64,000 bases of DNA, taken from contig BDDD01005167.1 in the NCBI GenBank assembly GCA_001972305.1, positions 1-64,000 of the forward strand, in the 5' to 3' direction. The stretch's first letter is position 1, and each line of letters starts with the position of its first letter. The notes beneath the pieces are model-generated. The model did not search any database. It saw nothing but the letters and a program-made list of their open reading frames with translations, and had not been told where the DNA came from. The translations under genes and the position numbers were made by a program. This document shows, one piece after another, positions 540 to 63,449 of this stretch. The DNA comes from Cephalotus follicularis. Lineage: Eukaryota; Streptophyta; Magnoliopsida; Oxalidales; Cephalotaceae.

Positions 540-880
540 CGACTTCTTTAGGAAAGGAGTCGACTTCTTTGTGTAAAAATCGCAACTTTACTGAGATGCG
601 AGTGAAAGGCATCGACTTCTTTTTGAAACACGTCGACTTCTTTTGCTCCAAAAGCTACAGACCAGTTTTGTTAAAAGACATCGATGTGTTGTGTGAAAGA
701 CATCGATCTGCATGAAAGGCGTCGACTTCTTCTTTAAAGACGTCAACTTCTTTTTCATAGCTCCTTGAAGATTGTTGCATTTTTCCAGAAAAGACATCGA
801 CTTGTATGAAAGACATCGATGCATTTGATGAAGCCCAGAAAAGACGTCGACTTCTATTGAAGGAGTCGACTTCTTTGGTC
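540..880. repeat. Cluster of GTCGAC / ATCGAT palindromic motifs
   Basis: About 14 occurrences of a (G/A)TCGA(C/T) core are flanked by a recurring CTTCTTT or AAAGG. Spacing is irregular, about 15-35 bases. Both orientations occur because the core is its own reverse complement. Runs of the peptide pattern D-F-F in the frames are a by-product. The cluster resembles those found inside LTRs and a Copia leader elsewhere in the window. Confidence 0.75.
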
Positions 881-1084
881 TGTTTTCTGCAGAATTCAGC
901 ATTTCTGCAATCTTTGCACTTCAAACTCCAATTTTGCACAGTTTTGGGTAGTATTTTTGCACTTTGGTCATTTAGAACTTGTACCTGAAAATCATTAAAA
1001 CACAACCAAAGTAGTCTATTCCAAGCCTAAAAATATCACAAATAATGCATTAAAAACAACACATTTTTATGCTAAACATCCCTC

Positions 1085-2055
1085 CATATTTGGAAGGCAG
1101 TCTCGTAGCTCTCAGCAGAGGAGAAGAGGTTGTGGCTCTCGAAGAAGGGACAAGGGATTATTGTCACCATAGAGGAGTCACTCTAGACTTGCTGGCTCTA
1201 GTAGTCAGGCCCCTTATGAACCGTGTATATATTGTCAACGTACGAATCATTCATCATGATTGTTCGTGGAAAATCAGTAAATGTATGGTATGTGGAGCTG
1301 CTGATCATAAAGTTATGAAGTGTCCTTATGGAAAGTACGGAGATGGCAATCAGCCAGGATGGAGTTCAACTTCCTATCAGGGAGGTCCTCAGCAAAGCCG
1401 TAACTCTGAACAACAATATCGAAGCCGTCCTAGCACCAGCTCAGGACGAGGAGACCGTGGAAAGCAACCAATGGGATCAACACCTACCGTGCAAGGTAGG
1501 GAGTATGCTATGGATAAACATTCCATAGCAGGGTCTGCCTCGGTTATCGGAGGTATGGTATCTATATTTCACTATATGGCACAGACCCTTATCGACTCAG
1601 GCTCATCCCATTCTTATATCGCATTGCATTTTATACGCCATATGAATGTGAAGCCAGAACCTTTGCCCTTTTTAGTGGAAGTTAGCACACCCGTAGGAGA
1701 GTCTGCTACCTCCGAATGGGTGTGTAAGTCTTGTACTATTGAGATCACCAGGCATGTCCTATTGGTAGATTTGATTGTATTACCGATGGGTGAGCTTGAT
1801 GTAATTCTGGGAATGGATTGGTTATCGATGCACTATGCGTATATGGATTGTAACAGAAAGGTTGTGACTTTCAATGTGCCAGGACAATCTCCGTTCCAGT
1901 TTATTAGAACCTTAGAATGTCAGCTGATTCAAATGATATCTGCTATACAGGCTGACAGACTCTTGAGACAGGGTTGTGATGCTTATCTTGCACATGTAAT
2001 GGATGGTAGGAGACGAGTACCAAAGTTGGAGGATGTCCCGATGGTATGCGAGTAT
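1085..2055 (+). pseudogene. Element A gag C-terminus and protease remnant
   Basis: A CX2CX4HX4C zinc knuckle is readable at about 1282-1323, with a partial second knuckle just upstream, as in two-knuckle chromovirus gags. Downstream is a retropepsin-like domain with a D-S-G active-site triplet near 1594 and the conserved ILGMDWL motif near 1805-1825. Gag would package RNA and the protease would process the polyprotein. This is a fossil and is broken. Family placement as Ty3/Gypsy rests on domain order with the RT to the right. Confidence 0.85.
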
Positions 2056-2369
2056 CCGGATGTAATACCCTGCTTGTTCGTATGTGCTTTGTGGATATTT
2101 TATATATGTATGTGTGTTGTTTTCGGGCTTTTAAATTTGTTTTATTTTTAAGTCTGGTCGCCCTGTGTTTTGGGCTTATGTGATTTGGGCTGTTTGATAC
2201 TAGCCTGAATTTTTGGATATGTTTATATGTTAATGTACGTTGAGTTGGGCCTATGTTATGTCTTTTTATTTTTATTTTTATCAAACTTAATTGTACAACT
2301 TTCAAAATATTAAAACAATTCCTTTTTATTTTAAAATCCTTTTATATTATTTTATATTATTTTCTTTTA

Positions 2370-2460
2370 TTCTTTTTCTTTTATTCTTTTCCTTTTCTTT
2401 CTTCTTCCTTTCTTTCCTTTCTTTCCTCTCTTCTCCCGAACTCTCTCCTCCCCTCATTAT
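2370..2460 (+). repeat. Polypyrimidine tract in solo LTR Q1
   Basis: About 90 bases are almost entirely C and T (CTTTCC/TTCTTT repeats). It lies about 310 bases from the LTR start. Pyrimidine- or GA-rich stretches at a similar place recur in the LTRs at 42140, 55194 and 63450, and may mark the promoter-leader part of the LTR; that role is inferred. Confidence 0.65.
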
Positions 2461-5904: not shown

Positions 5905-6434
5905 TGTTAGATATAGTGACCCGACAAGCCATTAGATGAGTTGTCATATTATATCTTATCTTGTATGGAAAAATCTTATTCCTTATATATATGATGCGTG
6001 CTAAAATATTTTATGGCTATATCACCTGTATTTTATCACATAATTGAAGTAGTTTATTAATTACCTACTTATACTAGTGATGCCCTGACATAAGGTTGGA
6101 TGCCTGGCATGGAGGCTATGAGACTGGTTACCTTATTCCTTATGTCAAATTTGTTCCAAGTCATAGGTTCACTTTGTGGGCATTAGTGAACCGGATAGAC
6201 CTACGCGTATGTTGTCTGCTCGTGGAATCGGGGGATGGATTCTCTCACGGTGACACCAATTCAATTCTGTTGATGTTGTGGTGATCCATGTGGTCTGTGG
6301 ACGTGCCATAATGGATTGTTTTTTGTTATATAGGGTGTTATTCTGCTGTCATGATTGTATGTTTTGTTTTATTCTACACCCTATACACCCTTGTCCATTT
6401 ATGGCATTGGATTCGGTTTTTTCCGTTTCCATCA
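5905..6434 (+). repeat. 5' LTR of Copia element B
   Basis: It is 530 bp, starting TGTTAG and ending CCATCA just before the primer-binding site. Its last 185 bases match 9841-10026 at about 97%. Confidence 0.9.
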
Positions 6435-6435
6435 G

Positions 6436-6447
6436 TGGTATCAGAGC
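6436..6447 (+). other. Primer-binding site of element B
   Basis: TGGTATCAGAGC is complementary to the 3' end of initiator tRNA-Met, the usual primer of plant Copia and Gypsy elements. It sits one base after the 5' LTR. Confidence 0.9.
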
Positions 6448-6729
6448 GTCCCACATCATCCTTGATTGAATATGTATGCCTTAGATGATATACTGATTAA
6501 TAGTTTAATTAATGGATGTGTTTTGTGATCAAACTAAAATTTCAAAGTGCCTTAATGAAAATTGCATGAAATTGGATTTCATTGTGTTTTTGTGCTGGGA
6601 ATGTTGTTTTAATGTGTTTAGAATTATGTTTGGAACATGCATAGTGCATTTTAGAATGCCAGAATGGTATACCATCCTATAAACCATTGTTTTCTGCATT
6701 TTTCGAAGTGCAGAAACTGCCCAGAGGGA

Positions 6730-6998
6730 TATAGACGTCGACTTTCTTGGTAGACGTCGATGTCTTGTTCATATTCCCAGGGAACACGTCGACGTTCTTG
6801 ATAGACGTCGATGTCTTGTTCGTTTTCCCAGAAAATGAGTCAATGTTTTCCCAGAAAAAGCGTCGATGTTTTTGACAAACGTCGACTCCTTTTTCAACTG
6901 TTCTTGAGAAATGCATTGATGCTCCTGTTATGCATCGACGCCTTGTTCAAGTATTTCCAGAAAACACGTCGATGCTTTTGATAAGCATCGACGTCTTT
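6730..6998. repeat. TCGA-core palindrome and hairpin cluster in element B leader
   Basis: About ten copies of ACGTCGA(C/T)G-like words are separated by TTCTTG or TTTTGA and CCCAGAAAA spacers. The last pair forms a perfect hairpin: ACGTCGATGCTT, loop TTGAT, AAGCATCGACGT (about 6966-6994). The cluster lies about 300 bases after the primer-binding site, in the untranslated leader. It closely resembles the clusters at 540-880 and in several Gypsy LTRs. Confidence 0.8.
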
Positions 6999-7788
6999 TA
7001 TAAAAAAAATCTGTTTTTAATAAAATTGGATTTTATACATTTTGGCACTTGGAAAATTAAAAATCATTTCTTGATTTAGTGAGAGTTTGATCAATTAACA
7101 ATCCTTGAATTAAATTGAGTAATTGGTTATCATTTATGGCATTTGTTATGTTTATGTTTTATTATATTGGATATAATATAGATCTTATGCACAATGGATG
7201 GCCCGAAAAAAGGACATAGACCTAGTTTATAGTTTTCTATGTGTGGATGGGTTTTATTTATTTATTATCTTTAAAGGTCTGTAATTAGGTACCTGCGTGC
7301 ACCATTTATTTTTCCTTACTTTTGTTATTTCTCCTTGTAATTTTTAAAATGTAATTATCTTTTCGAAAATGTAATGTTCTTTTTGTAAAAGAACACCTTG
7401 CAAGGAGAGATGGAGGAAAGGAGAAATGAAGTACAAGACTTTTGAAGGCCATGTATGCATGGTTATTGTTGTAATAAATAGATTTAAATCATTACACCTA
7501 GGAAGACCTAGTAGTAACTTTGGGCTCAAGTCATTACTAATATTGTCCTGGCCAATCCATTGACATATTTTAGAAATATGTCCAATGTGCATAAGATACA
7601 CGTCATGCATGCTAAGCCGTAATTAATTGGAATTGGGTAATACAACCAATGAATTAATTAATGGCTCGGTATTTAAAATTTGAGACCGCAAATTCCCTCA
7701 CTTCAATAATAAGTCTTAACGTAGGAACCCATGGATTGGTTCCCCGTGGCCTTCCACAATTTTCGTTGAGTAGTGTTCCTGGGTTGTT

Positions 7789-8093
7789 GGTTTGTCATGC
7801 CCTAGCTGAGGCTGATGACTTGGGGATATTATGTCAACGTCGGTGTTGGGCACCGCAAAGGGTGGCTATGTTTTAGCACTTGGACACGCCTACGTGTGGG
7901 TGTTAAAACTAGTGCATTCCAATGAAAATTTTGGGTACCTGACTTATTAAGATTCTGATGGTTTGTCATACCCTAGCTGAGGCCATATTGAATCTAAGAC
8001 CGAATACTATGATTGGATCTTGTATTGGATAAAAATTGACAACAAAAGCCTACCCATTGGATATATTATAGTTTGTCATGCCTTAGCTGAGGC
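7789..8093 (+). repeat. Three spaced copies of a CCTAGCTGAGG-core motif in the Copia leader
   Basis: The words around 7789-7812, 7961-7983 and 8071-8093 share about 21 of 23 bases, beginning GTTTGTCAT and ending AGCTGAGGC. Start spacing is about 171 and 110 bases and the DNA between is not repeated. All three lie in the leader between the primer-binding site and gag, where packaging and dimerisation signals usually reside. That function is an inference. Confidence 0.75.
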
Positions 8094-9170: not shown

Positions 9171-9224
9171 TAACCCGCATGGTGCGAGTACGTCAGGTAT
9201 GTTCATGATTGAACTAAATCTAGC

Positions 9225-12502: not shown

Positions 12503-15141
12503 TGTAACGCCCCGTGTTAATTTTTCACGAATAAACGTTTGGGCCTTGAGAAAATTTTTTCCTTTTTGCATTGTTGGATTGGGCTTTGTGGTGGCTGTAA
12601 GGCCCAATGAAGTGGAGAAAAGGAAGATATTTGGTTCAGTGTGATGCTGTCTTGGGAAGTGTTAAGCTTCTTGGGGAAGTCTTGGCTTTTGCGTGCTAAG
12701 TTCGGCTGAGGCAGGTATGTGTCATGCATTCTGTCAGTTTGCTTGGGAAAGGTGAGCTTTGCTTGAGAGCTTTTCCCTTTCTTCTCCGTTCATCTTTGAA
12801 GCTTTCTTTCGTTATACCGTAGGTTTGAAACGTTCTTGTCGACTACGAGTTTAGCAAGGTGATTTTTCTTACTCTCAGTTTTGGTACAACTATGCGATGT
12901 GCTGTATCTTCTATGGTAGTTTCGAGGCAGAGCGATTGAATGTGAAGGCCAGATAGGCTTTGTTATGGCTTTTATGCATGTGGGTGTTCATGCATGTTGC
13001 CCGGATGTATGTTTAGCAAATGATGCTAAGTTTGTTGTGTGTTGATCTTGTAGAGGAAGATCTAGGCGTGGAATCCACACAGTAAGGGAGCTAGTCAGAG
13101 GACTTACGATTTACTAGTGAGTGGGATATTCCTTTTTCTATCAATTGATACTGAGAGTTTTATTGTGAAATGTGCCTTGTTTCCATGATGATAATGCTTG
13201 ACCATGAGTTGTTTTCCTATTGTCTTTCTTGACTGTTGCATGTTGAAATACTATTTCTGAGTAGGTATGGTCGATGTCTTAGGTTGATATGTTTTTCCTC
13301 TGTTGTTTAAAGTATTTCAGCTTCTTGATATCATGTGTTATTCTCGGATACTGGGTACTGGTAAGCTCGGGTATATGAGACTCGAATGACTGAGGAGGAG
13401 GGTTGCGTTGGATCCCAATTCCATTCAGTAGTTTCATTGTCAATGATGGGCTGTTGGATGTGACTGTCCCCGGGTTCTGTTACCTAGATTCGCTCAATTC
13501 GTTGGTGTATGACGGTATGTTGTGTTGAGTGCAGCCAATGGATCCTGTACTTCCTTGGTCAGGCCATGCTGAGTGATTGGACATGAGATTTTGGACTAGA
13601 AAAGGTTCGAGCGGTGATTCGCTTACCTCTTTGTCGAAGTTGTCCTCTGTCATTTCTGATGAGGGAGGAGCTGAGCGGTGAATCGTGGGCCCCTCAGTCG
13701 ATGTTAACTGCGTGATTGCCAATCAAGGAGAGCTTGCTTAGCCCTTGGATCGAAGTTCATGTGGTATGCTCTGAACATGTGGTATCTATATGCGTATATG
13801 AGGGATGTGTACAATCATGTAGCCCATGACCTTGCCGATGTGGTTCTGACAGAGCTATTACTTGTGGATGTCGATGTGGTTCTGGCACTGAAGAGGATTG
13901 TATGGCCGAGGTGGTTTCGGCAATGGTATGTATGGTTACAATGTGTACGTGAATCCGCGCGGTACCTTTGTTCCTCTGATCAGTGTGATCCTCAGAGTCC
14001 TTGATCATTGTTGAATCCTCGAAGTGGATGGCACTTCGACATATTTTTACTTTTGTTCTTGAGATTTGTAATTGAGTTGGTCGCTTTGACGTTGTTCTCT
14101 TACTCTTTTATTATTTTCTCATGACATATACATATTAACCTATTTCTCTGTTTTAATGAGCAGTGTAATATGTTTTATTGTCGGCCCAGTTGGGGCATAA
14201 TACGAGATGTTGCTTTTGCGAGTCCAAATTATTGTGGATCACAAAGGGGGTCTCCTTGTTCTCACTCGCTAGTTAGTTGGACTAATCTCCTCTCAGTTTT
14301 TGTGCAGTGGATGTCGTGGTTCGATGTTCTTGTGATCCACCACACCAAGGCGTGTTTTGGTTTAGGCAGACCTTAGCTTGAGCACTTTAGCTGGTCCTCG
14401 GCTAGTCTGAGCTGCATGCATTGGGGGAATTTTGGGATTTTGTATATATTCTATTGTAGATCAAGAGAATCATTAAAGCCTTGTAATTCTTTTGTAAATC
14501 ATCTTTGTATGTATGCTATCTATGGATCATGATGCCTTGGGTATTTTGTGGTTGCTCGGTGAAGCATTTAAAATAGATTGAATGATTTTATACATTTATA
14601 TGTTTACAAGATCTTGATGATGGTTGTTGAGCTTTCTAAGTTCATAGGAGGGTTAGTGTCGAGCTACTGAGCTGCCGAGATGGCGTGGATCGATTTGGTG
14701 TCTTGTCCGACCATAGGTGATATGGTGGCCCTCCTCGGCTTTTTAGTCAGACCTGACCTCTAGGGTTGTTGGCAGAGTCGCTTGTACAGAAACCTAGTCC
14801 TCGGACGTTGGGTGTGACGTCGTGTGTTGAGGTTTAACCTCGAGTTTGTTTTGCCCGACCTCCCAACCAACCATGTTACATGTTATGTAGTTAAACGCTG
14901 GTGTTTGAGAGCTCGGGTGTAACATTGTTTGTGTCCTCGGGCTTTAGGTCCTTACCGTACATTGTCGTTTTGGGGAGCTCGGTTAGTTAGCACCTTCTGG
15001 CGTGTTTTACGTTGGATCTCATACCTTAGAATTTTAGGCTTCTATCGAGGTGGTGTCCGAGGTTGAGGATTCCTTCAGAGGTATCCTTCCTCCTGGCACG
15101 GCTCGTCTCGCCGAAGGGTGTAAGGGAAACGGGGCGTGTCA
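12503..15141 (+). repeat. 5' LTR of element C
   Basis: It is 2639 bp, from TGTAACGCCCCGTG to GGGGCGTGTCA, directly before the primer-binding site. It is GT-rich with many CCTCGG and GCTCGGG words between 13880 and 15000. The short open frames within it (e.g. 13480-14376) match nothing I know and are not conserved in the 3' copy. Its mate begins at 20031. Confidence 0.9.
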
Positions 15142-22035: not shown

Positions 22036-22189
22036 TGTAATACCCGCAATTTTAAATTTGATGTATATTTTACAATTAATTAATAAAGTATACATTGAAC
22101 TGAGAATTACTGCTTAATAGTCTTTTAATTGAGCTATGTGACACTGAATTAATGTGAAACTTAATTGTATGGCATTAAGCTGAAGAGGG

Positions 22190-22330
22190 ATTGCCAAACA
22201 ACCGACTGTTGGTAAAACAGTCGACTGAGAAATTTTAAGTGGCAACAGCCAACTGTTAGAGAAGCAGTCTACTAGATAACTGATGAATGGAACAGCCGAC
22301 TGTCCAAAGGAAGCAGTCAACTGTTAGAAC
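22190..22330. repeat. CAGTCGACTG motif cluster, first, element D 5' LTR
   Basis: About six copies of ACAGYCRACTGTTRG are spaced 15-30 bases apart, about 155 bases from the LTR start. The matching cluster in the 3' LTR is at about 31900-32035. Positions are conserved between the two LTRs, although several copies have drifted. Confidence 0.8.
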
Positions 22331-23069
22331 ACAGACAGCTATCCTGATATGTGTTGCATGAAACAGGGCAAGCGTGTTTTCAGATTGGACCGGTGATGGC
22401 AGGCGAGAATCGCAAAGAAAGGTGGCACAAAACGTGTCACCAGCTGCCTACACTGATGCATTAGTGTCCTGTGTATGTGTCCTGAGTTACTACACCTGCA
22501 AAACAGAAAAAGGAGTAAGAAAATGTGCATAGGACAGAGAGAGGGAATAGAAAAGGTTGAAACCTTGAGTTAATGACTGAAAGTGGTTACTGGAATACGA
22601 TTCATTTATAACAGATATTGTATGTGTGAATTTGAGTGTTAAAAACATTGAAAGGAGAGAGAATCATCTACTACTGTGTGCATGTGGAAATTGGAGTTCA
22701 AAGTAGAGTCAGGAAGCTTGAAATCTAATTTGTAAGCTTCTGGTTTAATTTCGGTTTTTTGTTATAGTTATTTCAATAGGTATATGTGTACTAAATTAGT
22801 TATGTACGCCAACTGTTAACATCACACTTAGATTAATTGCTGGATTATTGCGGTTGATTGAAATTGAAAGTGTATTGGAGTTAAAGAGAAGAATCACTTA
22901 ACTGATTCTGGGCTAGCGAATTGAGGTAGGAACTTTGACATGATTACGAAATATATAGCATGCATATCGTGTTGAGATTGTCTGTATTTGATTGCATGTT
23001 GATTGGAGTGAATTGAAATGTTATAAAGCATGCTCTGTTTTCTGTTTCTGTTGTGAGCGAATCTGGGCA

Positions 23070-23230
23070 AAACCAGTCGACTGTCATGGATAATAGTCGA
23101 CTACTAAATGTAGACAGCCAACTGTTAGTGCAAAAAGTCGACTACTCAAGGCGAACAGTCGACTATTCATAAGTAATAGACGACTGTGCAAGGAATCAAC
23201 CGACTGGTAATGGAAACAGTCGACTGTTAA
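23070..23230. repeat. CAGTCGACTG motif cluster, second, element D 5' LTR
   Basis: Seven or eight copies include the perfect 14-base palindrome AACAGTCGACTGTT at 23215-23228. The matching cluster in the 3' LTR is at about 32765-32905, with fewer copies because that LTR is shorter here. Confidence 0.85.
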
Positions 23231-24144
23231 ATGATTTTATCGCCACTAATAGGTATTGTTTAGGCTAAATGACCTGTAATTATAGTAGCTTCAGTAAGGG
23301 ATGATTCCAATAATCAACCCCTGCTATGTATAATCAGAATACTCAGAATCTAATGGCTTAGGCATTCTTGTGTGATTGGCATAAATTGATATTGAGTGCA
23401 CCGTGTAATGTTTGGTCTTTGCACTACTAATGTACTGATGCAATTGCTACTGTATTGTTTGTTATCAAAGTATTTCATAAATACTATTGTTCAAGTGTTC
23501 TCCTAAAATAATTGAAAGTGTTTCAAGTGATTCTAAAAAGGTAAGTGTTGAAGTGTTCAAGTGTTTTCTCTATAATGAGAACCCATGATAAGTGTTATTT
23601 TGCCATTGAGCAAAGATCGTTTTACTATCTTCAAAAGGGAATTATTGTTATCGTTTTCTCTACCAAGGAGAACTTATTATGTTACATTGCATATATGTAA
23701 TATCAGTGAATTGATTGTGAATTAAGTGATGTTGATGGTTTAGTGATCAGTGTGTATCACTGACTACGGTGGTGTGCCTATGGGCCAGGAGTTTATGGGT
23801 AGAGCTTATACACCAACTTATCTGCAATGCAGATCGTGAGTGAGTGATTGCCCGCCAAGTGCCGGCAATAGTGTTTTCGTAGTCTACCATCGCCGGAGTG
23901 CATGGTGGTAGTCAGGTGGTACATCGGTTGGGCTACGAGGTAGCACTAGATGACACCCACTAGTGGTCTTCGGACAAAGTGATTGATTGTTTGTACCCTT
24001 GTGCGGTATGATTGATACTTGAACGAGTGTAGCCACTTGGCATGATTGTTTATATATTGTCATATATATATTAGCTGTTTTAAAAATGATAAACTATCAT
24101 GCATGATTGCATCTATATATTCACTGTCATGCATACTTCATTCT

Positions 24145-24167
24145 TAGCCGAGTGAGGATAAAGGCTA
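24145..24167 (+). other. Hairpin in element D 5' LTR
   Basis: TAGCC, 13-base loop GAGTGAGGATAAA, GGCTA, about 325 bases before the LTR end. CTACTATTTCAG follows 1-16 bases later. The same structure is found in F (35021-35045), K (45245-45269) and J (59812-59836) on the other strand. Confidence 0.6.
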
Positions 24168-24493
24168 CTACCTACTATTTCAGATTAACGAAGTGAAGTG
24201 GAAATCGACTACGGAAGCCGTTCTTTGAAGGCTTGTCATTTTAAGGTTGTTAATGTTGATTGTAATAAGTCATACTTCCGTTGTGTTATATTTACATTTA
24301 TGATATGTAAAAATATAAATGTGTTATACTTGTACGCTTGTAATATGGGTTGCATGTGGATACTTAAAATAATCCAGTATATCGAAAGCTTCCGTAAAGT
24401 TTTATGTTTTGAATATTTTGGATTATTATTAAATGCTGGATTATTAACTGATAACCATATATATGTTGTTAATGGAAAACGGGGTGCGACAAC

Positions 24494-24506: not shown

Positions 24507-24594
24507 TTATATTTAATTATAAGCTATCGCTGGGATACTATCCTTGGTAACTAAGTGAATTGTTTCCCGGTGATTGCTATCATTCCTTATGGGA

Positions 24595-31723: not shown

Positions 31724-31738
31724 TAAGGAGGGGGGAAT
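31724..31738 (+). other. Polypurine tract of element D
   Basis: ATAAGGAGGGGGGAA sits directly before the 3' LTR start TGTATTCCCCGC. Confidence 0.9.
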
Positions 31739-34214
31739 GTATTCCCCGCAATTTTAAATTCGATGTATATTGTACAATTAATGAATAAAATATACATTGA
31801 ACTGATAATTATTGCTTAATTGTCTTTTAATTGAGCTAAGTGTGATACTGAATTAATGTGAAACTTAATTGTATGGCATTAAGCTAAAGAGGGATTGCCA
31901 AACAGCCGATTGTTGGTAAAACAGTCAACTGGGCAATTTCAAGGGGCAACAGCCGACTGCTAGAGAAACAGTCAACTGGATGACTGATGAATGGAACAAC
32001 TGACTGTCCAAAGGAAGTAGTCGATTGTTAGAACACAGACAGATGTCCTGATACGTGTTGCATGAAACAGGGTAGGCGTGTCTTCAGAATGGACAGGTGT
32101 TGGCTGGCGAGAATCGCAAAGAAAGGCGGCACAAAATGTGTCACCAGCTGCCTACACAGATGCATTAGTCTCCTGTGTGTGTGTCCTGAGTCACTACACC
32201 TGCAAAACAGAAAAAGGAGTAAGAAAATGTGCATGAGAGAGAGAAGAGAAAAGGTTGAAACCTTGAGTTAATGACTGAAACTGGTTACTGGAATACGATT
32301 CCTTTATAACAGATATTGTATATGTGAATTTGAGTGTTAATAACGTTGAAAGGAGAGAGAATCATCTTCTACTATGTGCATGCGCAAATTGGAGTTCAAA
32401 GTGGAGTTAGGAAGCTTGAAATATAATTGGTAAGCTTCTGGTTTAATTTTGGTTTTTTGTTACAGTTATTTCAGTAGGTATATGTGTACTGAATTAGTTA
32501 TGTATGCCTACTGTTAACATGCACACCTAGATTAATTGTTGGATTATTGCGATTGGTTGAAATTGAAAGTGAATTTGAGTTAAAGAGAAGAATCACTCAA
32601 CTGATTCTAGGATAGCAAATTGAGGTAGGAACTTTGACATGATTCTAAAATATATAGCATGCATATCGTGCTGAGATGGTATATATTTGATTGCACGTTG
32701 ATTGGAGTGAATTGAAATGTTATAAAGCATGCTCTGTTTTCTATTTCTGTTGTGAGCGAATCTGGGTAAAAACAGTCGACTATCTTGGATAACAGTCGAC
32801 TACTAAATGTAGACAGCCGACTCTTAAGTGTAAGCAGTCAACTATTCATAAGTAATAGAAGACTGTGCAAGGAATCACTCGATTGGTAATGGAAACAGTC
32901 GACTGTTAAATGATATTATCGCCACTAATAAGTACTGTTTAGGATAAATGACCTATAATTATAGTAGCTTCAGTAAGGGATGATACCAATAATCAACCCC
33001 TTCTATGTATAATCAGAATATTCAGAATCTAATGGCCTAGGCATTCTTGTGTGATTGGCATAAATTGATATTGAGTGTACCGTGTAATGTTTGGTCTTTG
33101 CACTACTAATGTATTGATGCAATTGCTACTGTATTGTTAGTTATCAAAGTATTTCATAAATACTATTGTTCAAGTGTTCTCCTAAAATAATTGAAAATGT
33201 TTCAATTGATTCTAAAAAGGCAAGTGTTCAAGTGTTTATCTCTATAATGAGAACCCGTGATAAGTATTATTTTTCCATTGAGCAAAGATCGTTTTACTGT
33301 TTTCAAAAGGGAATTATTGTTATCGTTTTCTCTACCAAGGAGAACTTATTATGTTACATTGCATATATGTAATATCAGCGAATTCATTATGATTGAAGTG
33401 ATGCTGATGGTTTAGTGATCGAAGTGTATCACTGACTACGGCGGTGAGCCTATGGGCCAGGAGTTTATGGCTAGAGCTAATACACCAACTTATCTGCAAT
33501 GCAGATCGTGAGTCAGTCATTGCCGGCCAAGTGCCAACAATAGTGTTAACCTAGTCTACCATCGTCGGAGTGCATGGTGGTAGTCAGGTGGTGCATCAGT
33601 TGGGCTAGGAGGTAGCACTAGATGACACCCACCAGTGGTCTTCGGACAAAGTGATTGATTGTTTATACCCTTGTGCAGTATGATTGATAATTGAATGAGT
33701 GTAGCCACTTGGCATGATTGTTTATTCCCTTGTGCGGTATGATCAATGCTTGAATGAGTGTAGCCACTTGGCGTGATTGTTTATATATATATATTAACTA
33801 TTTTCAAAATGATAAACTATCATGCATGATTGCATCTTTATATTCATTGTCATGCATACTTCCTACTTAGCCGAGTAAGGAAAAAAGCTAATACCTACTA
33901 TTTCAGATTGACGAAGTGAAGTGGAGATTGACTGCAGAAGCCATTCTTTAAAGGCTTCTCATTTTAAGGTTATTAATGTTGATTGTAATAAGTCATACTT
34001 CCGTTGTGTTATATTTACCTTTCTGATATGTAAAAACAAAACTGTGTTATACTTGTACGCTTGTAGTATGGGATTCATGCGGATACTTAAAATAATCCAG
34101 TATATCGAATGCTTCCGCAAAGTTTTAAGTTTTGAATATTTTGGATTATTGTTAAATGATGGATTATTAACTGATAACCATATACATGTTGTTAATGGAA
34201 AACGGGGTGTGATA
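31739..34214 (+). repeat. 3' LTR of element D
   Basis: 2476 bp, aligned end to end with the 5' LTR at about 90-95%. It ends GGGGTGTGATA, then GTATG. Motif clusters lie at 31900-32035 and 32765-32905. A short duplicated segment (GTGCGGTATGAT...GAGTGTAGCCACTTGGC) at 33672-33770 is single in the 5' LTR. Confidence 0.92.
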
Positions 34215-34833: not shown

Positions 34834-37086
34834 CATACTACATGCTTAAGCTTTATGCAGTACAGAGTTATATAATACATATTGGTAATGTAAATATAAC
34901 AAGGGGTAGGACTTAAACATTTTACAAATAAGAACCTTAAAATAAAACCTTCGTCGCGAAACTTCAGCAGCAAGTCTCCACTTTCCTTCATTAATCTGCA
35001 ATAGTAGGTATTAGCCTTTGTCCTCATTCGGCTAAGTAGGAATCATGCATGAAGATGAATATATAAATGTAATCATACATGATAGTTTATATTTTAAAAC
35101 AGTATATATATATAAGCAACTATGCCAAGAGGCTACAAACAGTCAGCCATCAAGAATACCACAATGGGTACAATCACTCAGTCCAGTTGTCTGAAGACCA
35201 GTAGTGGGTGTCATCTGTCGCTACCTCCTAGCCCCAACGATGCACCACCAAACTGCCACCATACACTCCAATGATGATAGAAAAGGTAAACAGTATTGCC
35301 GACACTTAGCGGGAAATTAACAGTCACGATCTGCATTGCAGATAAGTTTGGTGTATAAGCTCTAGCCAACTCCTGGAACCTAGGCCCACCTCTGTAGTCC
35401 ATGATACACTCCGATCACAAGAACATCAGAACTATCAATCACAATCAATACAGTACAGTACAGTTATTACATGTTCAATGTAATAGAAAATAGTTCTGTT
35501 TTGAGAAATCAGTAAAACACTTCAGTAAGTAGTCATTTCGAGAAAACAATACAGTAATAGTAGTTCTCCTTAGAGAAAACAGTACAGTGTAAACCTTTAA
35601 TCGTGCATATAATAGTCAGTCCTTGAAGACCTTAAACATTAGTATTATATAAAATACTTTGATAGATATGAAATATCTATACAGTAAACAATATGCAATG
35701 CATAACAGTACAATCATTGGCAATTGAAGGATCAAACAGTACAATCAATATCAATTCAAGAATCAATAGTAATAAAGCACAATTTATGTCAAGTACTGAT
35801 CATAGAAGCATGAATCATGAAACCAGTATAATCTTATGATCGTCAAGCTTAAACAGTAAGAAAATGACCTATTTCAGTACTGGTTTCCTCTTAATTGCTG
35901 ACAATTCTCTTTAACAATCGATTGTCTTTCTTGAATAGTCGATTGTCCTATTGCATAGTCGACTATTTTCCTTTAACAGTCTACTGTTCCTATTGAGTAG
36001 TCGACTGGTTACCTTAAATAGTCTTCTGTTTTCCTTAGAATATCGGTTCACAGTGTAACATAAAACATAGCATGCATTTTGCACAATGCAATTCACTCCA
36101 ATATTAACATGCAATCATATATATACCATCTTGGCCTAATATACATACGATATTTTCAAAATCATGTCATAAGCCCTACCTCAATTTGCTATCCCATAAT
36201 CAATTGATTGATTCTTCTCTTTACACTCAATCCTCTTCTACTCCAATCAAACTTCACAATTCCAGAATTCAATCCTTTGTATATGTTTAATAGTAGATAT
36301 GGAACCGGAATCAGTATGTATATACGAATTAAAGAACTATAACAATAATTGAATTTGAAAACAGAAGCTTACCAATCAATCTCAGCTTCTATTTCAACCT
36401 TGAAACTCCAATTAGCATGAACACTCAATACAGTATATGAACTCTCTCTTTTCAGTAACATTTCTAACTCAACTCAAGCCTCTCTAACATCTGATATAAA
36501 GGAATCCCGTATTCCAGTCTGTTTAATTCTGTAACTCAAACTTCTACCATTTTCTTCTTCTTCTTCTCTCTCTCTCTCTCTCTCTCTCTCACTTTATTTC
36601 ATTGAACTCTTTTGTTTTCTATCAGTTTGCAGGTTACAAAAGCTCAGTACATAAATGCCTTAGTCATTCATTAGCTGGCGCCACATTTTGGCATATTTCG
36701 ACACGTTTCTATTCCATTTAAGCTAGTAAAACACCTGTCCAAGCCATGCCCGTTGTTACTCTATTCTAAGCAACACGTAACAGACTTATGTCTGAGCTCT
36801 CCCAGTCAACTGCCTCCTCTAACAATTGGCTGTTTCCTTTATGAGTCGCTTAGTCGACTGTTTTCTCCAACAGTCGACTGTTAAGCACCGAATTTTGTTT
36901 CTTTAAGTTTCTTTCAACATAACTTTCCATTTCATTGAATTTAGTCAAATTTCAATTCAATTGAGCCCTCAATTTAACTCATTAACCACAATTCACATAA
37001 TAAATGGACATTTAATTTCAATTTAATGTTTAATTTATTCATCCATCGCATAATATACATTAATTGAATTTTTGCTGTTATTACAG
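34834..37086 (-). repeat. Right piece of F's 3' LTR
   Basis: On the minus strand it starts TGTAATAACAGC at 37086, next to a polypurine tract. It carries D-family features in reverse: CAGTCGACT clusters at 35910-36030 and 36795-36885 (including perfect AACAGTCGACTGTT at 36869-36882), a TTAGCC/GGCTAA hairpin at 35021-35045, and a CT microsatellite at 36552-36590. With 12365-12502 the LTR totals about 2.4 kb, matching D's LTR length. Confidence 0.8.
36552..36590. repeat. (TCT)n/(CT)n microsatellite
   Basis: TTC repeats pass into a run of CT dinucleotides inside F's LTR, in the place where other LTRs here have pyrimidine- or GA-rich tracts. Confidence 0.9.
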
Positions 37087-45244: not shown

Positions 45245-46819
45245 TTAGCCTTTGTCCTCACTCGGCTAAGTAGGAATTATGTATGAATGTGAAAAAATAT
45301 ATGTAATAATGCATGGCATTTATGATTTTTGAAATAGTTTATATATATGCCAATATATACGAAAACATGCCAAGCGGCTACAATCAATCAGTTATCAAAG
45401 ATACCGCACAAGAGTACAATCAATCAGTTGTCCGAAGACCAGTTGTGGGTGACACATGTTGCTAACTCCTAGCACAAACTGCGCACCACCTAACTACCAC
45501 CATGCACTCCGATGATGGTAGAAAAGGTAAACAATCCTGTCGGCGTTTAGTGGGCAACTAACACTCAGGATCGGCAATGCTGATAAATTTGGTGAGAGCT
45601 CTAGCCAACTCCTGGCACAAAGGTTCACCTCTATAGTCAGTGATGGCTCCTATCACCCGACTAACAGAAACTAGCAATCACAGTCAATACAGTGTATTAC
45701 ATATATAATGTAATAAAACAGTTGGTCTCTTTTGTAGAGAAAACAGTAAAACAGTATCAGTGGTCCTCATTTGGGACAAAATAGCAGTAACACTTTCAAT
45801 AGGTTCTCGTAGAGAACAAGATAACAGTAACAGTAGTTTGTGCATTTAGCACTCAGTTGTAACAGTAACAGTAAAATGTGCCTATAGCACCCAGTTATTG
45901 AAAACAATAAACAGTAGTTTGTTCGTATAGCACTCAATCTTTGAAAACAGTAAACGGTAGTACATTTCATGATATGAAATACATAACATCAATTTAGTCC
46001 ATTTCAGGAACAACAACAATAACAGTACATGTAAACTCAATGCATGGAATCAGTCAGGGATATATAAGTCGCTCGATTCCTATAAACTAGCTGAACAAGG
46101 CAGGGATTGACTATGGACATCATCCCGTGTAAAAGACAGTGTGATTAGAGTGAATAGGCGCAAAGCAGGGCTTTAAGCCTTGACAGTTTCGTCCAATGTG
46201 TCGACCGTCATCATAAAGCGTCGATGTAACTTTGCCTAAATCGTTGACATTTATGCCTTAAGTGTCGGCGCTTTTTGGCTTGCAGCCAATTTCCAGAAAA
46301 ACATCAAGAACATAGCATGTACATTTCACAATCAATGTATCTCAAAACAGCATGCAATCATATAGAGATCATTCAGACGTAATATACATGCTATATGTTC
46401 AAAATCATGTCAAAGTTCCTACAAGCTAAAGTAGTGGCAACAGTACAGTCGAGTTGCAGGTTCAATTGTCGAACATTTCCAAATTGCTACCAACGGTCGA
46501 TTATCACTTCCCTTCATTGACGAACAAAATTACCAGCTCACTCACTACACATACAACACATTTCCATTAAGCTTAACACACAGAAACCAACACTGCCGTC
46601 ACCGGAGCGCCGACCAGATTGTAGCCGACTCGCCCAGCTTGTTCAACACCCATAAAAAGTTTCCACATTGAATTGTCTACACAGAACCATTGGAGACTCG
46701 GCGCCGAACGCCGTGTCATAGGTAGCAGTGGGTTTGACTCACTGAGTCTACTCGCCGGACCTCCACCACTTCTGTCACCACCGAAAAACGCCATACAACC
46801 ATCAGTTCTATGCGCCACT
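45245..46819 (-). repeat. K 3' LTR, middle piece
   Basis: It aligns with K's right LTR (62256-63449) at about 92% up to about 46370. It includes a TTAGCC/GGCTAA hairpin (45245-45269), imperfect AACAGTAACAGTA tandem words (45780-45960) and a GTCGAC cluster (46180-46275). From about 46430 it resembles the corresponding part of LTR I (48640-49000). It ends at LTR I. Confidence 0.7.
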
Positions 46820-56544: not shown

Positions 56545-56710
56545 AAAACCGTCGACACTTTACTGCTTCCAAAACTGACCCATCGACACTTTCATACCTT
56601 CAAACTGAGTAGTCGATGCTTTATAATTATGTTTACTAAAACCGTCGACTCTTTTGTGTGTTAGACTGAATAGTTGACACTTTACACTTTTAAACTAAAC
56701 TAGTCGACGC
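56545..56710. repeat. GTCGACNCTTT motif cluster in LTR L
   Basis: About six copies of (C/A)GTCGACRCTTT or close variants at 20-35 base spacing. Same word class as in LTR Q2 and K. Confidence 0.75.
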
Positions 56711-57272: not shown

Positions 57273-57432
57273 ATAGGCTGGACAGTTGTGAACAATCGAG
57301 ACAATTTAGGTTGGACAGTTGTGAACAGTCGAGACAATACAGGCTCGACTATTGTGAACAGTCGAGACAACATAGGCTGGACTGTTGGGAACAGTTGAGA
57401 CGATATGAGATTGGACCATTGTGAACAAGCCC
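57273..57432 (+). repeat. 32-bp direct repeat array in LTR L
   Basis: Five imperfect copies of a unit with GGCTGGACAGTTGTGAACAG and TCGAGACAAT. Each unit again carries an AGTCGA half-palindrome. Confidence 0.8.
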
Positions 57433-58655: not shown

Positions 58656-59423
58656 ACTTCATATCCATTTACAGTGCAGAGCCGTTTACGGTCCATATAC
58701 ATTTACAATCCATATCCGTTTATGATTCATAGCCATTTAGCACTCCACTAGGAATCTAGAGGTAAACTCCATATGTAGTTGACATCGAGTGGTTGACTAA
58801 ATACATATATCGTCCCATACCGGCATATATAAGTAGTTAACCGTCCTATCAGTTCATTCACAATCTATTTCAAGCATCCATGCAATGCCCGTCCATTCGA
58901 TAACAGTCCATCCGATCACTAACCATTCAATAAAGGTCCATTCGATCACTAACGGTTCAATAACGGTCCATTCTATCACTATCCATTCAATAACGGCTCA
59001 AACGATCACTATCCATTCAATAACGGCTCATATGATCATTATCCGTTCAATAACGGTCCATTCGATCACCAACCGTTCAATAATGGTCCATTACGATACG
59101 ATACGATCGATGATGATACGTTAGCCACCCATAACCATCTATACACTATCCATTCGCAATAACCATTCGTATTCTATCTCGATCAACCACTATTCGATAC
59201 GGAAACTGTTCAGAGAACACTCATGCCTTTCGGTCCATTCGATCGATCACTTAGCCATCACGACTTATTCAGTCAGTCACTTAGTCGCTCTACAGTTCAT
59301 AGCCCTCATTTTCACTTCATTTGGTATATCCCATAGGATCTCAGCAGGCCTGCCTTCTTGAGGTCAGCCTTTCGGGCAAGTCTAGACGCTTGGTAGCCTT
59401 ACGTGCCATTTGGAGGCTTAAAC
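58656..59423. other. Unassigned segment right of LTR L
   Basis: No gene or LTR end is recognised. It contains the 30-bp tandem array at 58890-59095 and scattered CCATTTACGGT-type words to either side, which look like decayed array copies. Before L inserted it was continuous with 54091-55193. Confidence 0.5.
58890..59095. repeat. 30-bp tandem repeat, about seven copies
   Basis: Unit made of TCCATTCGATCACTAACC and GTTCAATAACGG with roughly 85-90% agreement between copies. The unit is a multiple of three, so it gives a repetitive open frame (His-Ser-Ile-Thr words) that I do not take as a gene: it has no domain, and its flanks are LTR debris. Confidence 0.85.
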
Positions 59424-61310
59424 TGTCACACCCCGCTTGCATTAACAACATACAACATGGCAATTTAACAGATATCCAGCTTATACAGAGAACGATAAAA
59501 TTTAAAACTTTTAAACAGACATCATCTTGCGGAAGCATTTATATATAAGCTGAAAGCAAACGGAACCATGCGTCCCATACCACATGATCCCCACAACATC
59601 CACGGTAAAACATGTTAAAAAGCCCACAAGCGGAGCATGATCCAAAGTTGATACAACAACAATAGCAAAACATTAGTACATAAACCAAAGTACAACATGT
59701 TCGCTACAAAGCTTTACAAAACTTAAAGCAGAAAACTCCGTCACATCACTGTCCGATACGGCCATGCTTGGTGATATCCAAAACGCGGCATCAATCAGCA
59801 ACAGTAGGGGGTTAGCCTTTGTCCTCACTCGGCCAAAGTCATATAAGCAACACAATATCAATAAAACCAAGTATGAAAGCAGTATGATGCAGTACATACT
59901 ATATCTCGATGCATATATATAAATATAGATATGCATATGCCAAAACACAATGTCACGATATCACCGAAACCACGGTGTCACAATATCACAATAATCACGA
60001 TGCACGGTCTCAAACAAGTCCAAAGGACTACACAATACACGGTTCACGGTACACGGTAGGTACGAAGAGCGTCGCCAACTCCTGGCCCCGACGTCGTACA
60101 TCCCGACATCGGCCCCGTCTCCGGACGGCACGAAGCAGGTCACGATACAGTAAGTCACCCAGCCAACTCCTGGCCCCTGAGTCGACCAGACCACTAGTCA
60201 TCGCTGGCATCTCCGCCACGCAACTAGTACGGCCACAATCAAAATCACAATCAGAAATCACAGTCAAGCTCAATCACAATCACAGTCATCTAGATGCTTA
60301 AAACAGTTTTCCAAGTAGTTTATAAAATAAAATACCTGAAACAAACTCATTTTCACAATATCACGGTTCACGGTTCTAGATATCACAAAACTCAGTTCAC
60401 GGTGTTTTTGGAAGCCATTTTCACGGTTCGAAAGTATATATTTCTCAAAACATATATTTCGTATAAAGTAATGATTTTTCATTAACTACAATGCACTTCC
60501 AGAAATATGTTATAACAATTCAAACTCAATGATCACGATATCCAAAGCAGTTTATAAAGCTTCACGAAGCAAAACATCACAATACACAATGCAGCTGCTA
60601 AAACAGCCACCAACACACACCCAACACAACCCAAAATGACATATTTATGCACATGCACGTTCCAAACTCACAATATAACATAAACATGCATTTTATTTCA
60701 TCAAAAACATTTACAATTGAAATTATGTTGAAAAAGTGACTTCCCCCTACCTTAGAACTCCAAGTTAGGAGTTGCAATCCACCTCTTTAAGCTTGAATCC
60801 GAAGCTCTTGCAACCCCAACACGATCAGCCACCTTCAACAAGCCAAAAATCCCACTGTCAAGCCTCCAAACTTTCGGTTTCAACACAAACTCCACAAAGC
60901 CACAACACACACACACACTTTCACTCTCAAACTCTCTTGAATCACAAGAAATGATGGAGAAAGAAGAGAGAAGCATGTGTTTTAAGGAGAGAAATCCCGG
61001 ACCCCCCTCTGCCAAAAGCCAAAAAATAACAAAACACTCTCCCATTTCTCATTTAAGGCAGAAACACGTGGGCTGTCTGGCGCATGGCAGTCGACTGCCT
61101 CGCTTGGCAGTCGGCTGTTTCTGCCGACACTCCCACCAGTCGGCTGCCTCCTCACGGCAGTCGGATGCCCCTGCACAAAAACACACAGCAACACACTTTC
61201 TTGCAACGTTTTCAACACGGGGAAGAGGGAAAACACGATTCTCATTAACACAAGGTGTAAAATTACATTGGAAAGCAAAATTACACATAAATGAAAATCC
61301 CGGGCGTTAA
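59424..61310 (-). repeat. LTR-like block J
   Basis: Left end TGTCACACCCCGC is LTR-like and resembles the reverse of D/K LTR ends. A TTAGCC/GGCCAA hairpin (59812-59836) and the following words place it in the D/K group. Right edge is uncertain, near CCCGGGCGTTA at about 61297-61307; no clear target duplication. A cluster of GGCAGTCG(A/G)CTG words lies at 61071-61172. No coding sequence; frames in 60752-61362 are composition effects. Confidence 0.6.
61071..61172. repeat. GGCAGTCGRCTGCC palindrome cluster in block J
   Basis: Four copies of a GGCAGTCGACTGCC-like palindrome at 20-35 base spacing: same CAGTCGACTG core as D, with a GC-rich flank. Confidence 0.8.
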
Positions 61311-61374
61311 CTAGCCTGATCTCAATTGGAATCAAAATCCAAGAAAAACCAGGCAGTTTCACTAAAACAAGGCT

Positions 61375-61735
61375 ATTGGCGTCAACACCATCCTTATTGT
61401 AACAGTCTACACAAGTTTGATAAGTGTGGAGCTAGTCCATCCCCAAGACAACATCGAAATCTCAGATCGGCAATACAATCAGATCAGTGAATAACTGAAC
61501 TGCAGCTGTCGTGATCTCACAGTCATTCAGTACGGTATCAATCAATATGCAGTTTCCAGTTGGAGGGCTTACCTCCAGCACATAAGGAAAACGAGAGGTC
61601 AAACAATGCAAGTTGCAAACAAAATAAGATGCAATGAATGAATGTGTAGCTCCTGGATCAATCAATATGCGAGCTTAAATACTTCGTATCTGGTATATCT
61701 TTTTTAGATAAGGTATAGACTCTACTTTTCATGAT
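61375..61735 (-). pseudogene. K protease remnant, minus strand
   Basis: Reads as the retropepsin-like part of a D-family element: I-D-P-G-A-T active-site motif near 61660-61645 and a conserved L-I-V-L-P-I segment near 61465-61485. Close to the protease regions of F (40245-40673) and D. It would cut the gag-pol polyprotein. Broken. Confidence 0.8.
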
Positions 61736-61920
61736 TCCGTTGCGTCGACGTGTCCACGTTTTCCTTTGCGTTGACGCGGTAAGGTACGAACCTTATGTGT
61801 CAACGATTTCCTTTCGGTGATCCATTTTGTTTCCTATAAGGACAATGATGTAAAGAATCAGGAAACAATTCACTTGATTGCCGAGGATAGTATCCCAGCG
61901 ATAGCTTATAATTTAATATA
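61736..61920 (-). other. K leader remnant
   Basis: Between protease remnant and primer-binding word. 61820-61920 is the reverse complement of D's leader (GTTTCCC, GATAGTATCCCAGCGATAGC in shared order with 24510-24600), so K belongs to the D family. Contains GTCGACGTG/GTTGACGCG words near 61743-61775. Confidence 0.65.
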
Positions 61921-61933
61921 AGCTCTTATACCA
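61921..61933 (-). other. Primer-binding site of element K
   Basis: On the minus strand TGGTATAAGAGCT, one main difference from TGGTATCAGAGC, lies directly inside the 5' LTR. Confidence 0.75.
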
Positions 61934-63449
61934 TGTTTTCACTCCTCGTTTTTCCATTAACAACATATATATGGTTATCAGTTAATAATGCAGCATTTAA
62001 CAATAATCCAAAATAATCAAAACTTAAACTTTGTGGAAGCATTCGATATACTAAATTATTTTAAATCTCCGCATGAAGCCCATACTACAAGCGTACAAGT
62101 ACAACACAGTTATATTTTACACATCAGAAATGTAAATATAACATAACTAAAGTATGAATTATTACAAATCAACATTAACAACCTTCAAATAAGAAGCCTC
62201 TGAGTATAGCTCCAGCAGTAGGTCCATAACACCTTCAGTTCAATCTGAAATTGTAGGGGGTTCGCCTTTGTCCTCACTCGGCTAAGTAAGAATTATGCAT
62301 GAATATGAAAATATATATGTAATCATGCATGACATATATGATTTTTGAAACAGTTTATATATATGCAAATATATACAAAAACATGCCAAGCGACTACAGT
62401 CAATCAGTTATCAAAGATACCGCACAAGGGTACAATCAATCAGTTGTTCGAAGAGCAGTAGAGGATGACACATGTTGCTAACTCCTAGCACAAACTACGC
62501 ACCACCTAACTACCACCATGCACTCCGATGATGGCAGAAAAGGTAAATAGTACTACCGATATTTAGCGGACAACTAACACTCAGGATCGGCATTGTCGAT
62601 AAATTTGGTGAGATCTCTAGCCAACTCCTTGCACATAGGTCCACCTCTGTAGTCAGTGATGGCTCCTATCACTCGACTAACTCAAACGAGTAATCACAGT
62701 TAATACAGTATATTACATATATAATGTAATAAAACAGTTGGCCTCTTTAGTAGAGAGAACAATAAAACAGTATCAGTGGTCCTCATATGGGAAAAAAATA
62801 GCACTAACACTTTCAGTAGGTTCTCGTACAGAACAAGATAACAGTAACAGTAGTTTGTGCATTTAGCACTCAGTTGTAACAGTAACAGTAAAATGTGCAT
62901 ATAGCATGCAGTTCTTGAAAACAGTAAACAGTAGTTTGTGCGTATAGCACTCAGTCTTTGAAAACAGTAAACAGTAGTACATTTCATAATATGCAATGCA
63001 TATAACATTAATTCAGTCCATTTCACGAATAGCAACAATAACAGTACATGTAAACTCACTGCATGGAATCAATCAGGGATATATAAGTCGCTTGATTCCT
63101 ATAAACTGATTGCACATGGCAGGGATTGACTATGGAAATCATCCCGTGTAAAAGCCAGTGTGATTACAGTGATTTGGTGTAAAACAGGCCTTGAAGCGTC
63201 GACTTTTCTGAATTAAGCATCGACTGTATCGTCCAAGGTGTCGATGGTCATCATAAAGCGTCAACAATTTCTACACTTAAGCATCGATGTAACTTTGCCT
63301 AAAATGTCAACATTTATGCCTTAAGCGTTGACGGTCCTAACCTAAGCGTCGACGCTTTATGGTGTTCAGGCAATTTCCAGAAGAACATCAAGAATAGAGC
63401 ATGCATATTTCACAATCAATCTATCTCAAAACATCATGCAATCATATAG
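61934..63449 (-). repeat. K 5' LTR (part), right side
   Basis: Starts TGTTTTCACTCC on the + strand. Matches 41810-42139 and 45245-46370 at about 92%. Carries the AACAGTAACAGTA words (62830-62980) and a GTCGAC cluster (63190-63355). LTR P enters at 63450 and the rest is outside the window. Confidence 0.8.
63190..63355. repeat. AAGCGTCGACGCTT cluster in K 5' LTR
   Basis: About eight copies of AAGCRTCRACN-type words, including the perfect 14-base palindrome AAGCGTCGACGCTT near 63340-63353. The left K LTR has the same cluster (46180-46275) with fewer copies. Confidence 0.8.

What the first reader, a model, noticed from the sequence alone, without database searches (positions are those of the whole stretch)
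540..63355. TCGA-core palindrome clusters recur in unrelated retroelements
Dense groups of short palindromes around TCGA occur at 540-880, 6730-6998 (Copia leader), 11340-11740, 22190-22330, 23070-23230, 31900-32035, 32765-32905, 35910-36030, 36795-36885, 46180-46275, 56545-56710, 57273-57432, 61071-61172 and 63190-63355. The core stays the same while the flank is family-specific: AACAGTCGACTGTT in D/F, AAGCGTCGACGCTT in K and Q2, GGCAGTCGACTGCC in J, ACGTCGATGC in Copia B. Inference: a shared, repeatedly acquired or selected site, for example binding of a dimeric host factor, hairpin RNA, or a small-RNA source.
Basis: partly seen in the sequence, partly recalled or inferred. Interest (0 to 1): 0.7.

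Follow-up and report, generated by a model that had tools for sequence, protein, structure and literature searches.

The report
Phased palindrome arrays in many retrotransposons
Many dissimilar retrotransposons in this plant-like genome carry small arrays of a short mirror-image DNA site with the same centre, mostly about two DNA turns apart, which looks like a docking platform for a host protein that different jumping genes have each adopted.

Summary
Genome-wide, AACAGTCGACTGTT occurs 11,812 times and AAGCGTCGACGCTT 18,108 times; reversed strings 25 and 15. Twenty sampled 10-kb loci hold 23 arrays, 0.1 expected. Arrays sit in LTRs of at least three dissimilar Gypsy families and in a Copia leader. 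Units are imperfect palindromes of about 14-18 bp. In nine mutually dissimilar arrays 40 of 72 gaps are 19-22 bp, with a 10.2-bp period (three of the nine are not phased as wholes). In related Gypsy LTRs the array keeps its place while its flank type (CAG or GCG) changes at least twice, probably by module exchange. Mismatches show no G·U preference, so an arrayed site for a dimeric host DNA-binding factor fits better than RNA hairpins; the factor is unknown. Nearest known kind: palindromic repeated motifs of Sireviruses. This is a wider, phased variant.

The parts
22036..24491 (+). 5' LTR of Gypsy element Y (TG...CA; target-site duplication GTATG at 22031-22035 and 34215-34219)
   Evidence: Pfam RVT_1, RNaseH, SH3_Tf2-1 in the internal region
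22190..22330 (+). upstream, more degenerate type I cluster in the Y 5' LTR
   Evidence: one perfect palindrome; 3 centres
23070..23230 (+). main type I array (CAGTCGACTG units about 21 bp apart) in the Y 5' LTR
31738..34214 (+). 3' LTR of Y (TG...TA), about 91% identical to the 5' LTR
31900..32035 (+). copy of the upstream cluster in the Y 3' LTR (no perfect TCGA palindrome of 8 bp or more left)
32765..32905 (+). copy of the main array in the Y 3' LTR
35910..36030 (-). type I array in a related, inverted LTR (Z); includes ACAATCGATTGT, the same 12-mer as the repeated motif reported for Tnd-1
36795..36885 (-). second type I cluster in Z, with AACAGTCGACTGTT
46180..46275 (-). degenerate type III cluster in LTR K, same place in the LTR as the Y array
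63190..63355 (-). type III array (AGCGTCGACGCT) in LTR Q2, same place in the LTR as the Y array
61071..61172 (.). GGCAGTCGACTGCC with degenerate GGCAGTCGGCTG neighbours
6251..6434 (+). 184-bp 5' LTR of a Copia element (TG...CA; second copy 9843-10026, 97% identical)
   Evidence: Retrotran_gag_2 at 8281-8895
6436..6447 (+). primer binding site TGGTATCAGAGC of the Copia element (initiator-Met type, recalled)
6730..6998 (+). type II array in the Copia 5' leader; copies differ in the number of about 65-bp two-palindrome modules
540..880 (.). type II array (AAAGACRTCGACTTCTTT-like units), host element not classified
12503..15141 (+). LTR of Gypsy element X: no array (negative comparison; 16 TCGA, 1 palindromic centre)

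Best explanation
The clusters are cis-regulatory arrays of a palindromic binding site in non-coding parts of LTR retrotransposons. One unit is an often imperfect palindrome of about 14-18 bp with centre GTCGAC (less often ATCGAT or GCCGAC) and one of three flank types: I CAG|CTG, II (A)GAC|GTC, III AGCG|CGCT. Neighbouring units are most often 19-22 bp apart, so they face nearly the same side of the helix. Arrays grow and shrink by tandem duplication, which keeps units alike within a family. Shown: enrichment, unit structure, spacing, presence in Gypsy LTRs and a Copia leader, and change of flank type at a matching LTR position. Inferred: a host DNA-binding protein that acts as a dimer (or paralogues preferring different flanks) docks cooperatively on the array, raising transcription or keeping the element open; different elements came to carry the same core because they use that same protein; flank types spread between LTR families by recombination between co-packaged RNAs.
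For: Exact genome-wide counts hundreds of times above the reversed-string control. TCGA is the commonest centre of palindromes of 12 bp or more in the 200-kb sample, 27 in all, and is enriched 7.2-fold as a centre with 4-bp arms, against 2.3 or less for the other 29 centres listed. 23 arrays in 12 of 20 sampled loci, 0.1 expected. Arrays in both LTRs of two sampled elements (L007 at 95.3% and L008 at 94.7% LTR identity), in Y, and in the Copia leader; no BLAST match (60 bp or more, E 1e-6) among nine array regions. 40 of 72 gaps are 19-22 bp; best period 10.2 bp, reached by 0 of 2000 jittered sets; the 31 gaps of 25 bp or more alone give Rayleigh p 0.017-0.030. Units match their own reverse complement (10.37 of 14) at least as well as their neighbour's (10.18). 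Sense-strand mismatches are not skewed to G-U (Y: 77 G/T against 168 A/C; Copia: 113 against 108), so pairing in RNA is not what is kept. In the Copia copies the central CpG is kept more often (0.937) than the flank CpGs of the same motif (0.845). The array lies upstream of the conserved LTR segment in Y but downstream of the LTR in the Copia element, as a position-tolerant enhancer could.
Against: No protein, expression, methylation or small-RNA data; the factor is unknown. Inserted copies show little extra conservation of the motif: non-CpG identity to the majority base 0.918 in motif against 0.908 in spacer (Y), 0.945 against 0.928 (Copia); central CpG kept 0.729 against 0.690 in the two spacer CpGs (Y). 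Taken as whole arrays, 3 of 9 (Copia, L008, L012c) are not phased at 10.25 bp. A 21-bp tandem unit could give the main spacing without any protein. Arrays also fold strongly as RNA, and adjacent units are slightly more complementary than shuffled ones (10.16 against 9.91, permutation p 0.0165; Mann-Whitney p 0.09).
Confidence: 0.58

Rival explanations
1. The arrays act as RNA: adjacent palindromes pair into hairpins in the element's transcript and serve packaging or dimerisation, or are diced into small RNAs by the host, as reported for palindromes in maize Sirevirus LTRs.
For: RNA folding z-scores -8.4 (Copia leader), -5.3 (Y array), -2.4 (Q2 array) against dinucleotide shuffles; adjacent units slightly more complementary than shuffled units (permutation p 0.0165); precedent that smRNAs map in excess to Sirevirus palindrome clusters, as cited in PMC10760457 (passages).
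Against: Palindromes fold as RNA automatically. Self-complementarity of units (10.37) is no lower than neighbour complementarity (10.18). Sense-strand mismatches do not favour G-U. In Y the array lies well upstream of the conserved LTR segment, so probably in U3 (start site not mapped), while in the Copia element it is in the leader.
Confidence: 0.22
2. Neutral tandem duplication: a few ancestral LTRs gained a 21-bp minisatellite with a palindromic unit, and everything seen is descent, recombination and amplification without function.
For: Units and about 65-bp modules clearly duplicate; related LTRs share one array position; inserted copies show little motif constraint.
Against: Nine mutually dissimilar arrays, in Gypsy LTRs, a Copia leader and unclassified elements, share core, unit length and the 19-22-bp gap; eight other tested palindromic cores with G or C gave 1-17 close neighbours against 112 for TCGA; the core stays GTCGAC through flank changes.
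Confidence: 0.15
3. An element-encoded DNA-binding protein recognises the arrays and counters silencing, as VANC does for VANDAL elements.
For: Formal likeness: short motif, arrays in non-coding DNA, tandem growth, family-specific motif (PMC5735166, passages).
Against: In Y and L007, where array-bearing LTRs bracket a coding region, the Pfam matches were gag-pol domains only. Transposase_32 in L018 and DUF4216 in L019 lie in loci with arrays but were not tied to the array-bearing element. The same core in Gypsy and Copia elements argues for one host factor.
Confidence: 0.05

Closest known systems
Palindromic repeated motifs (RMs) of Sirevirus Copia elements (PMC2829016, section 9 and passages seen; Bousios et al. 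2016, PMC4728375, not held, known only from citations)
   Same: 8-32 palindromic units clustered in non-coding DNA, family-specific sequence with a shared signature, in LTRs upstream of the TATA box; two of the 13 listed RMs have a TCGA centre (Vitis CGGTCGACCG, Tnd-1 ACAATCGATTGT), and the latter 12-mer occurs in array Z here.
   Different: Here the arrays are in Gypsy LTRs and in the leader of a short-LTR Copia element, whereas that paper calls RMs Sirevirus-specific. Signature is GTCGAC rather than CGG-CCG. The 19-22-bp spacing, 10.2-bp periodicity and flank-type switching at one LTR position are measured here; the parts of that paper that I saw do not mention them.
Shared palindrome CACCGGACNNNGTCCGGTG in maize Copia elements and Helitrons (PMC10760457, passages seen)
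   Same: One palindromic motif abundant in two unrelated element classes of one genome.
   Different: Different sequence; reported as RNA-structured regions; no spacing or flank-type analysis in the passages seen.
VANC-bound motif arrays of VANDAL DNA transposons (PMC5735166, passages seen)
   Same: Short family-specific motif multiplied by tandem repeat in non-coding DNA of an element.
   Different: VANC motifs are not palindromic and lie in one orientation; the binder is element-encoded; no such gene was seen here.

Membership tests
Sirevirus repeated motif (RM) | host element is a Sirevirus (Copia) | tested here: not met
   Array-bearing Y, L007 and L008 are Gypsy: RVT_1, RNaseH, SH3_Tf2-1 or rve matches (Y, L007), or DNA similarity of the internal region to Y's (L008). 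The window Copia element has a 184-bp LTR; its Sirevirus status was not tested.
Sirevirus repeated motif (RM) | palindromic units, several per cluster, family-specific sequence | tested here: met
Sirevirus repeated motif (RM) | CGG-CCG signature | tested here: not met
   dominant signature is GTCGAC with CAG, GAC or GCG flanks
Sirevirus repeated motif (RM) | location in the upper half of the LTR or the linker before ENV | tested here: inconclusive
   upper half in Y (about 1035-1195 of 2456); lower part in L008 (about 1094-1389 of 1612); leader in the Copia element
VANC-type anti-silencing target | element encodes its own motif-binding protein | tested here: inconclusive
   no such domain among the 50 ORFs scanned (30 of the window's 58 of 110 aa or more, and 20 from sampled loci); copies are decayed and not all ORFs were scanned
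Host transcription-factor site array (enhancer) | a named host protein binds the unit | not testable with these tools
   no binding data. GTCGAC fits the string RYCGAC listed with CBFHV (co-occurrence seen in a search listing; the barley CBF meaning is recalled); this does not explain the conserved flanks

The most novel reading that the evidence does not exclude
Many unrelated LTR retrotransposons of one genome depend on one host DNA-binding protein (or small family) and have converged on helically phased arrays of its palindromic site; the flank types are interchangeable keys swapped between elements by recombination, so that elements track changes in, or split between, paralogous host factors.
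Probability: 0.3. Interest if true: 0.78.

Novelty: new variant of a known kind. Interest (0 to 1): 0.55.

Why it matters
If the arrays are binding platforms, a single host protein would sit at a large share of this genome's retrotransposons: about one array per 8 kb in the sample, a rough extrapolation. That would tie silencing or activation of many families to one factor and give a direct, testable bait for finding it. It would extend palindromic repeated motifs beyond Sireviruses to Gypsy LTRs and to a leader position. Flank-type switching at one LTR position would be a natural experiment on how element and host-factor specificity co-evolve.

Tried and rejected
Chance: rejected. AT-only palindromes cluster too (ATAT 81, TATA 86 neighbours within 100 bp), but of the eight other cores with G or C that were tested none gave more than 17, against 112 for TCGA; CCGG, GCGC and CGCG were not tested. 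CpG decay as the cause of the flank types: it can blur ACG to ACA but cannot turn CAG into GCG. RNA pairing as the kept feature: not supported by the mismatch counts, though not excluded. Retroelement target-site palindromes (PMC6911290, passages): those are 5-6 nucleotides at insertion sites, a different thing. [quoted passage not shown] A CBF/DREB reading (RYCGAC) was considered; it covers the core only and stays a guess. Literature: one exact-string search with five array strings gave four papers, all through CCAGTCGACTGG only; by title and abstract they are unrelated work. Searches (13 of 13 listed; 12 of 369; 12 of 104; 2 of 2) showed no title reporting such arrays in Gypsy LTRs; one search gave one paper whose GTCGAC hits are cloning primers. 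These cover the open-access library only, and two listings were capped.

Limits. The 20 sampled loci were picked by hand at round coordinates, not by a random generator; 8 of 20 have no array by the strict rule. The tree has 9 rows, and type was known before the test. Two changes of type is a minimum. Copies for searches were best BLAST matches (20 of the 39 matches other than the window's own for Y; for Copia 16 pieces out of 40 match rows other than the window's own, one piece spanning two rows), so they are biased to close relatives. The nine arrays were chosen for lack of BLAST similarity among themselves; the 12-array version gave the same period but includes related pairs. A second palindrome class, with centre TCCAA/TTGGA, was seen and not resolved.
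Full report
WHAT WAS CHECKED. The window (64,000 bp; contig 5167 of a 1.58-Gb assembly) holds 237 TCGA. Perfect TCGA-centred palindromes of at least 8, 10, 12 and 14 bp number 34, 15, 8 and 5, against 11.9, 3.3, 1.0 and 0.37 on average in 30 first-order Markov copies. The claim is too generous in detail: 5 of 14 intervals have no perfect palindrome of 8 bp or more and 3 have one, and the exact K/Q2 14-mer is only in Q2.

GENOME SCALE. AACAGTCGACTGTT occurs 11,812 times and AAGCGTCGACGCTT 18,108 times in the assembly; the same strings reversed occur 25 and 15 times. In 20 loci of 10 kb picked by hand (185,133 non-N bases), TCGA is the commonest centre of palindromes of 12 bp or more (27; next ATAT 20, TATA 16). 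As a centre with 4-bp arms it is 7.2-fold enriched, against 2.3 or less for the other 29 centres listed. Arrays (at least 3 TCGA centres with 5 of 7 pairs, gaps up to 110 bp) number 23, in 12 of 20 loci, against 0.1 in second-order Markov copies. That is about one per 8 kb; any genome-wide figure is an extrapolation.

WHERE THEY ARE. Element Y (5-bp duplication GTATG; LTRs 22036-24491 and 31738-34214; Gypsy by Pfam) is nested in the 3' LTR of element X. X and Z carry a stretch that I recall as typical of a Tekay/Del chromodomain (visible, not scored by any tool). Y has its main array about 1.0-1.2 kb into each 2.5-kb LTR. X's LTR has 16 TCGA but one palindromic centre; Y's has 8 and 6, so not every Gypsy LTR has an array. 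Sampled loci L007 and L008 have LTR pairs of 95.3% and 94.7% identity with arrays in both LTRs. L007 has gag-pol domains of Gypsy type; L008's internal region matches Y's at about 70%. The window's Copia element has a 184-bp LTR, the primer site TGGTATCAGAGC, a Copia gag, and its array 300-560 bp after the LTR. Nine array regions (Y, L007, L008, Copia, 540-880, and four from L005, L011, L012 and L017) show no BLAST match to each other at E 1e-6 and 60 bp or more. Five of these nine are not assigned to a superfamily.

ANATOMY. Three flank types recur: I CAG|TCGA|CTG, II GAC(A/G)|TCGA|(C/T)GTC, III AGCG|TCGA|CGCT, with mixtures in L008. Units are often imperfect: mean self-complementarity is 10.37 of 14 over 230 units. 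In the Y family (22 sequences) the array is a visibly degenerate tandem repeat of about 21 bp, one palindrome per unit; in the Copia family (17 sequences) modules of about 65 bp with two palindromes are present in different numbers. Among nine mutually dissimilar arrays 40 of 72 gaps are 19-22 bp. The best period over 6-17 bp is 10.2 bp, and none of 2000 sets with each gap jittered by up to 5 bp reached it. Gaps of 25 bp or more alone (31) give Rayleigh p of 0.017-0.030. Six of nine arrays are phased as wholes; the Copia leader, L008 and L012c are not. Gaps of three and five turns cannot come from repeats of a 21-bp unit, but they could still be inherited within a lineage.

FLANK SWITCHING. 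The LTRs of Y, Z, L009 and L011 (type I) and K, Q2, L020 and L028 (type III) align on both sides of the array (L011 has only about 40 bp of upstream sequence). On a tree of the segment after the array, type III is not one clade (AU p 5.8e-6; two changes at least). L009 (I) and L020 (III) are 91.5% identical over 342 bp ending about 100 bp before the array, but about 74% identical after it. The simplest reading is exchange of the array between related LTRs by recombination; switching unit by unit in place is less likely but not excluded.

DNA OR RNA. Units match their own reverse complement (10.37 of 14) as well as their neighbour's (10.18); other pairs in the array reach 9.91. Counted in the sense strand, departures from symmetry are 77 G/T and 168 A/C in Y, and 113 and 108 in the Copia leader; pairing in RNA would favour G/T. 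The arrays still fold well as RNA (z -8.4, -5.3, -2.4), as any palindrome array would, and adjacent units are slightly more complementary than shuffled ones (permutation p 0.0165, Mann-Whitney p 0.09). Inserted copies show little extra conservation of the motif; only in the Copia copies is the central CpG kept more often than flank CpGs (0.937 against 0.845). The case for function therefore rests on recurrence and geometry, not on constraint within copies.

COMPARISON WITH THE KNOWN. PMC2829016 (section 9 and one passage seen) reports palindromic repeated motifs in 13 Sireviruses, upstream of the TATA box and before ENV, with a CGG-CCG signature except Tnd-1, and calls them absent from classic retrotransposons. 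Two of its 13 have TCGA centres, and the Tnd-1 motif ACAATCGATTGT is in array Z here. [quoted passage not shown] PMC5735166 (passages) shows how family-specific motif arrays grow by tandem repeat and are read by a protein. The present case works like a Sirevirus motif array but is not a member of that class as defined: the hosts that could be classified are mainly Gypsy, and the signature differs.

VERDICT. A real, very abundant feature, best read as phased arrays of a site for an unidentified dimeric host DNA-binding factor; a new variant of a known kind.

Noticed in passing
window 6572, 7026, 7167, 9512; L008:3566, L009:5207, L009:5225, L012:7078, L023:7104 and others: Inverted repeats with a constant 5-base centre TCCAA/TTGGA and different 6-10-bp perfect arms: 15 found with arms of 6 or more against 0.71 expected from the centre's frequency (window plus 20 loci; at least two pairs look related). 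Constant loop with variable stem; of 17 with arms of 5 or more, 9 lie within 400 bp of a TCGA palindrome; some are inside coding stretches.
   Followed up: partly
window 12503-34833: Nested insertion: Gypsy element Y (22036-34214, duplication GTATG) sits in the 3' LTR of Gypsy element X (LTRs 12503-15141 and 20031-22035 continued at about 34215-34833).
   Followed up: yes
window 58877-59116: Degenerate minisatellite with 15/30-bp period (TCCATTCGATAACGG-like), from the repeat finder.
   Followed up: no
window 6251-10026: Copia element with 184-bp LTRs and a 1.8-kb leader; only gag, zinc-knuckle, Pol_BBD and pre-integrase matches were found within its 3.8 kb, so it seems to lack most of pol.
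   Followed up: partly
   Followed up: partly
L018:572-1381 and L019:5611-6168: ORFs with Pfam Transposase_32 (1.1e-21, its 5' end beside the TCGA array at 1351-1475) and DUF4216 (2.6e-14, about 3.6 kb from the array at 9791-9932) in loci with TCGA arrays; arrays might also occur in DNA transposons, not tested.
   Followed up: no
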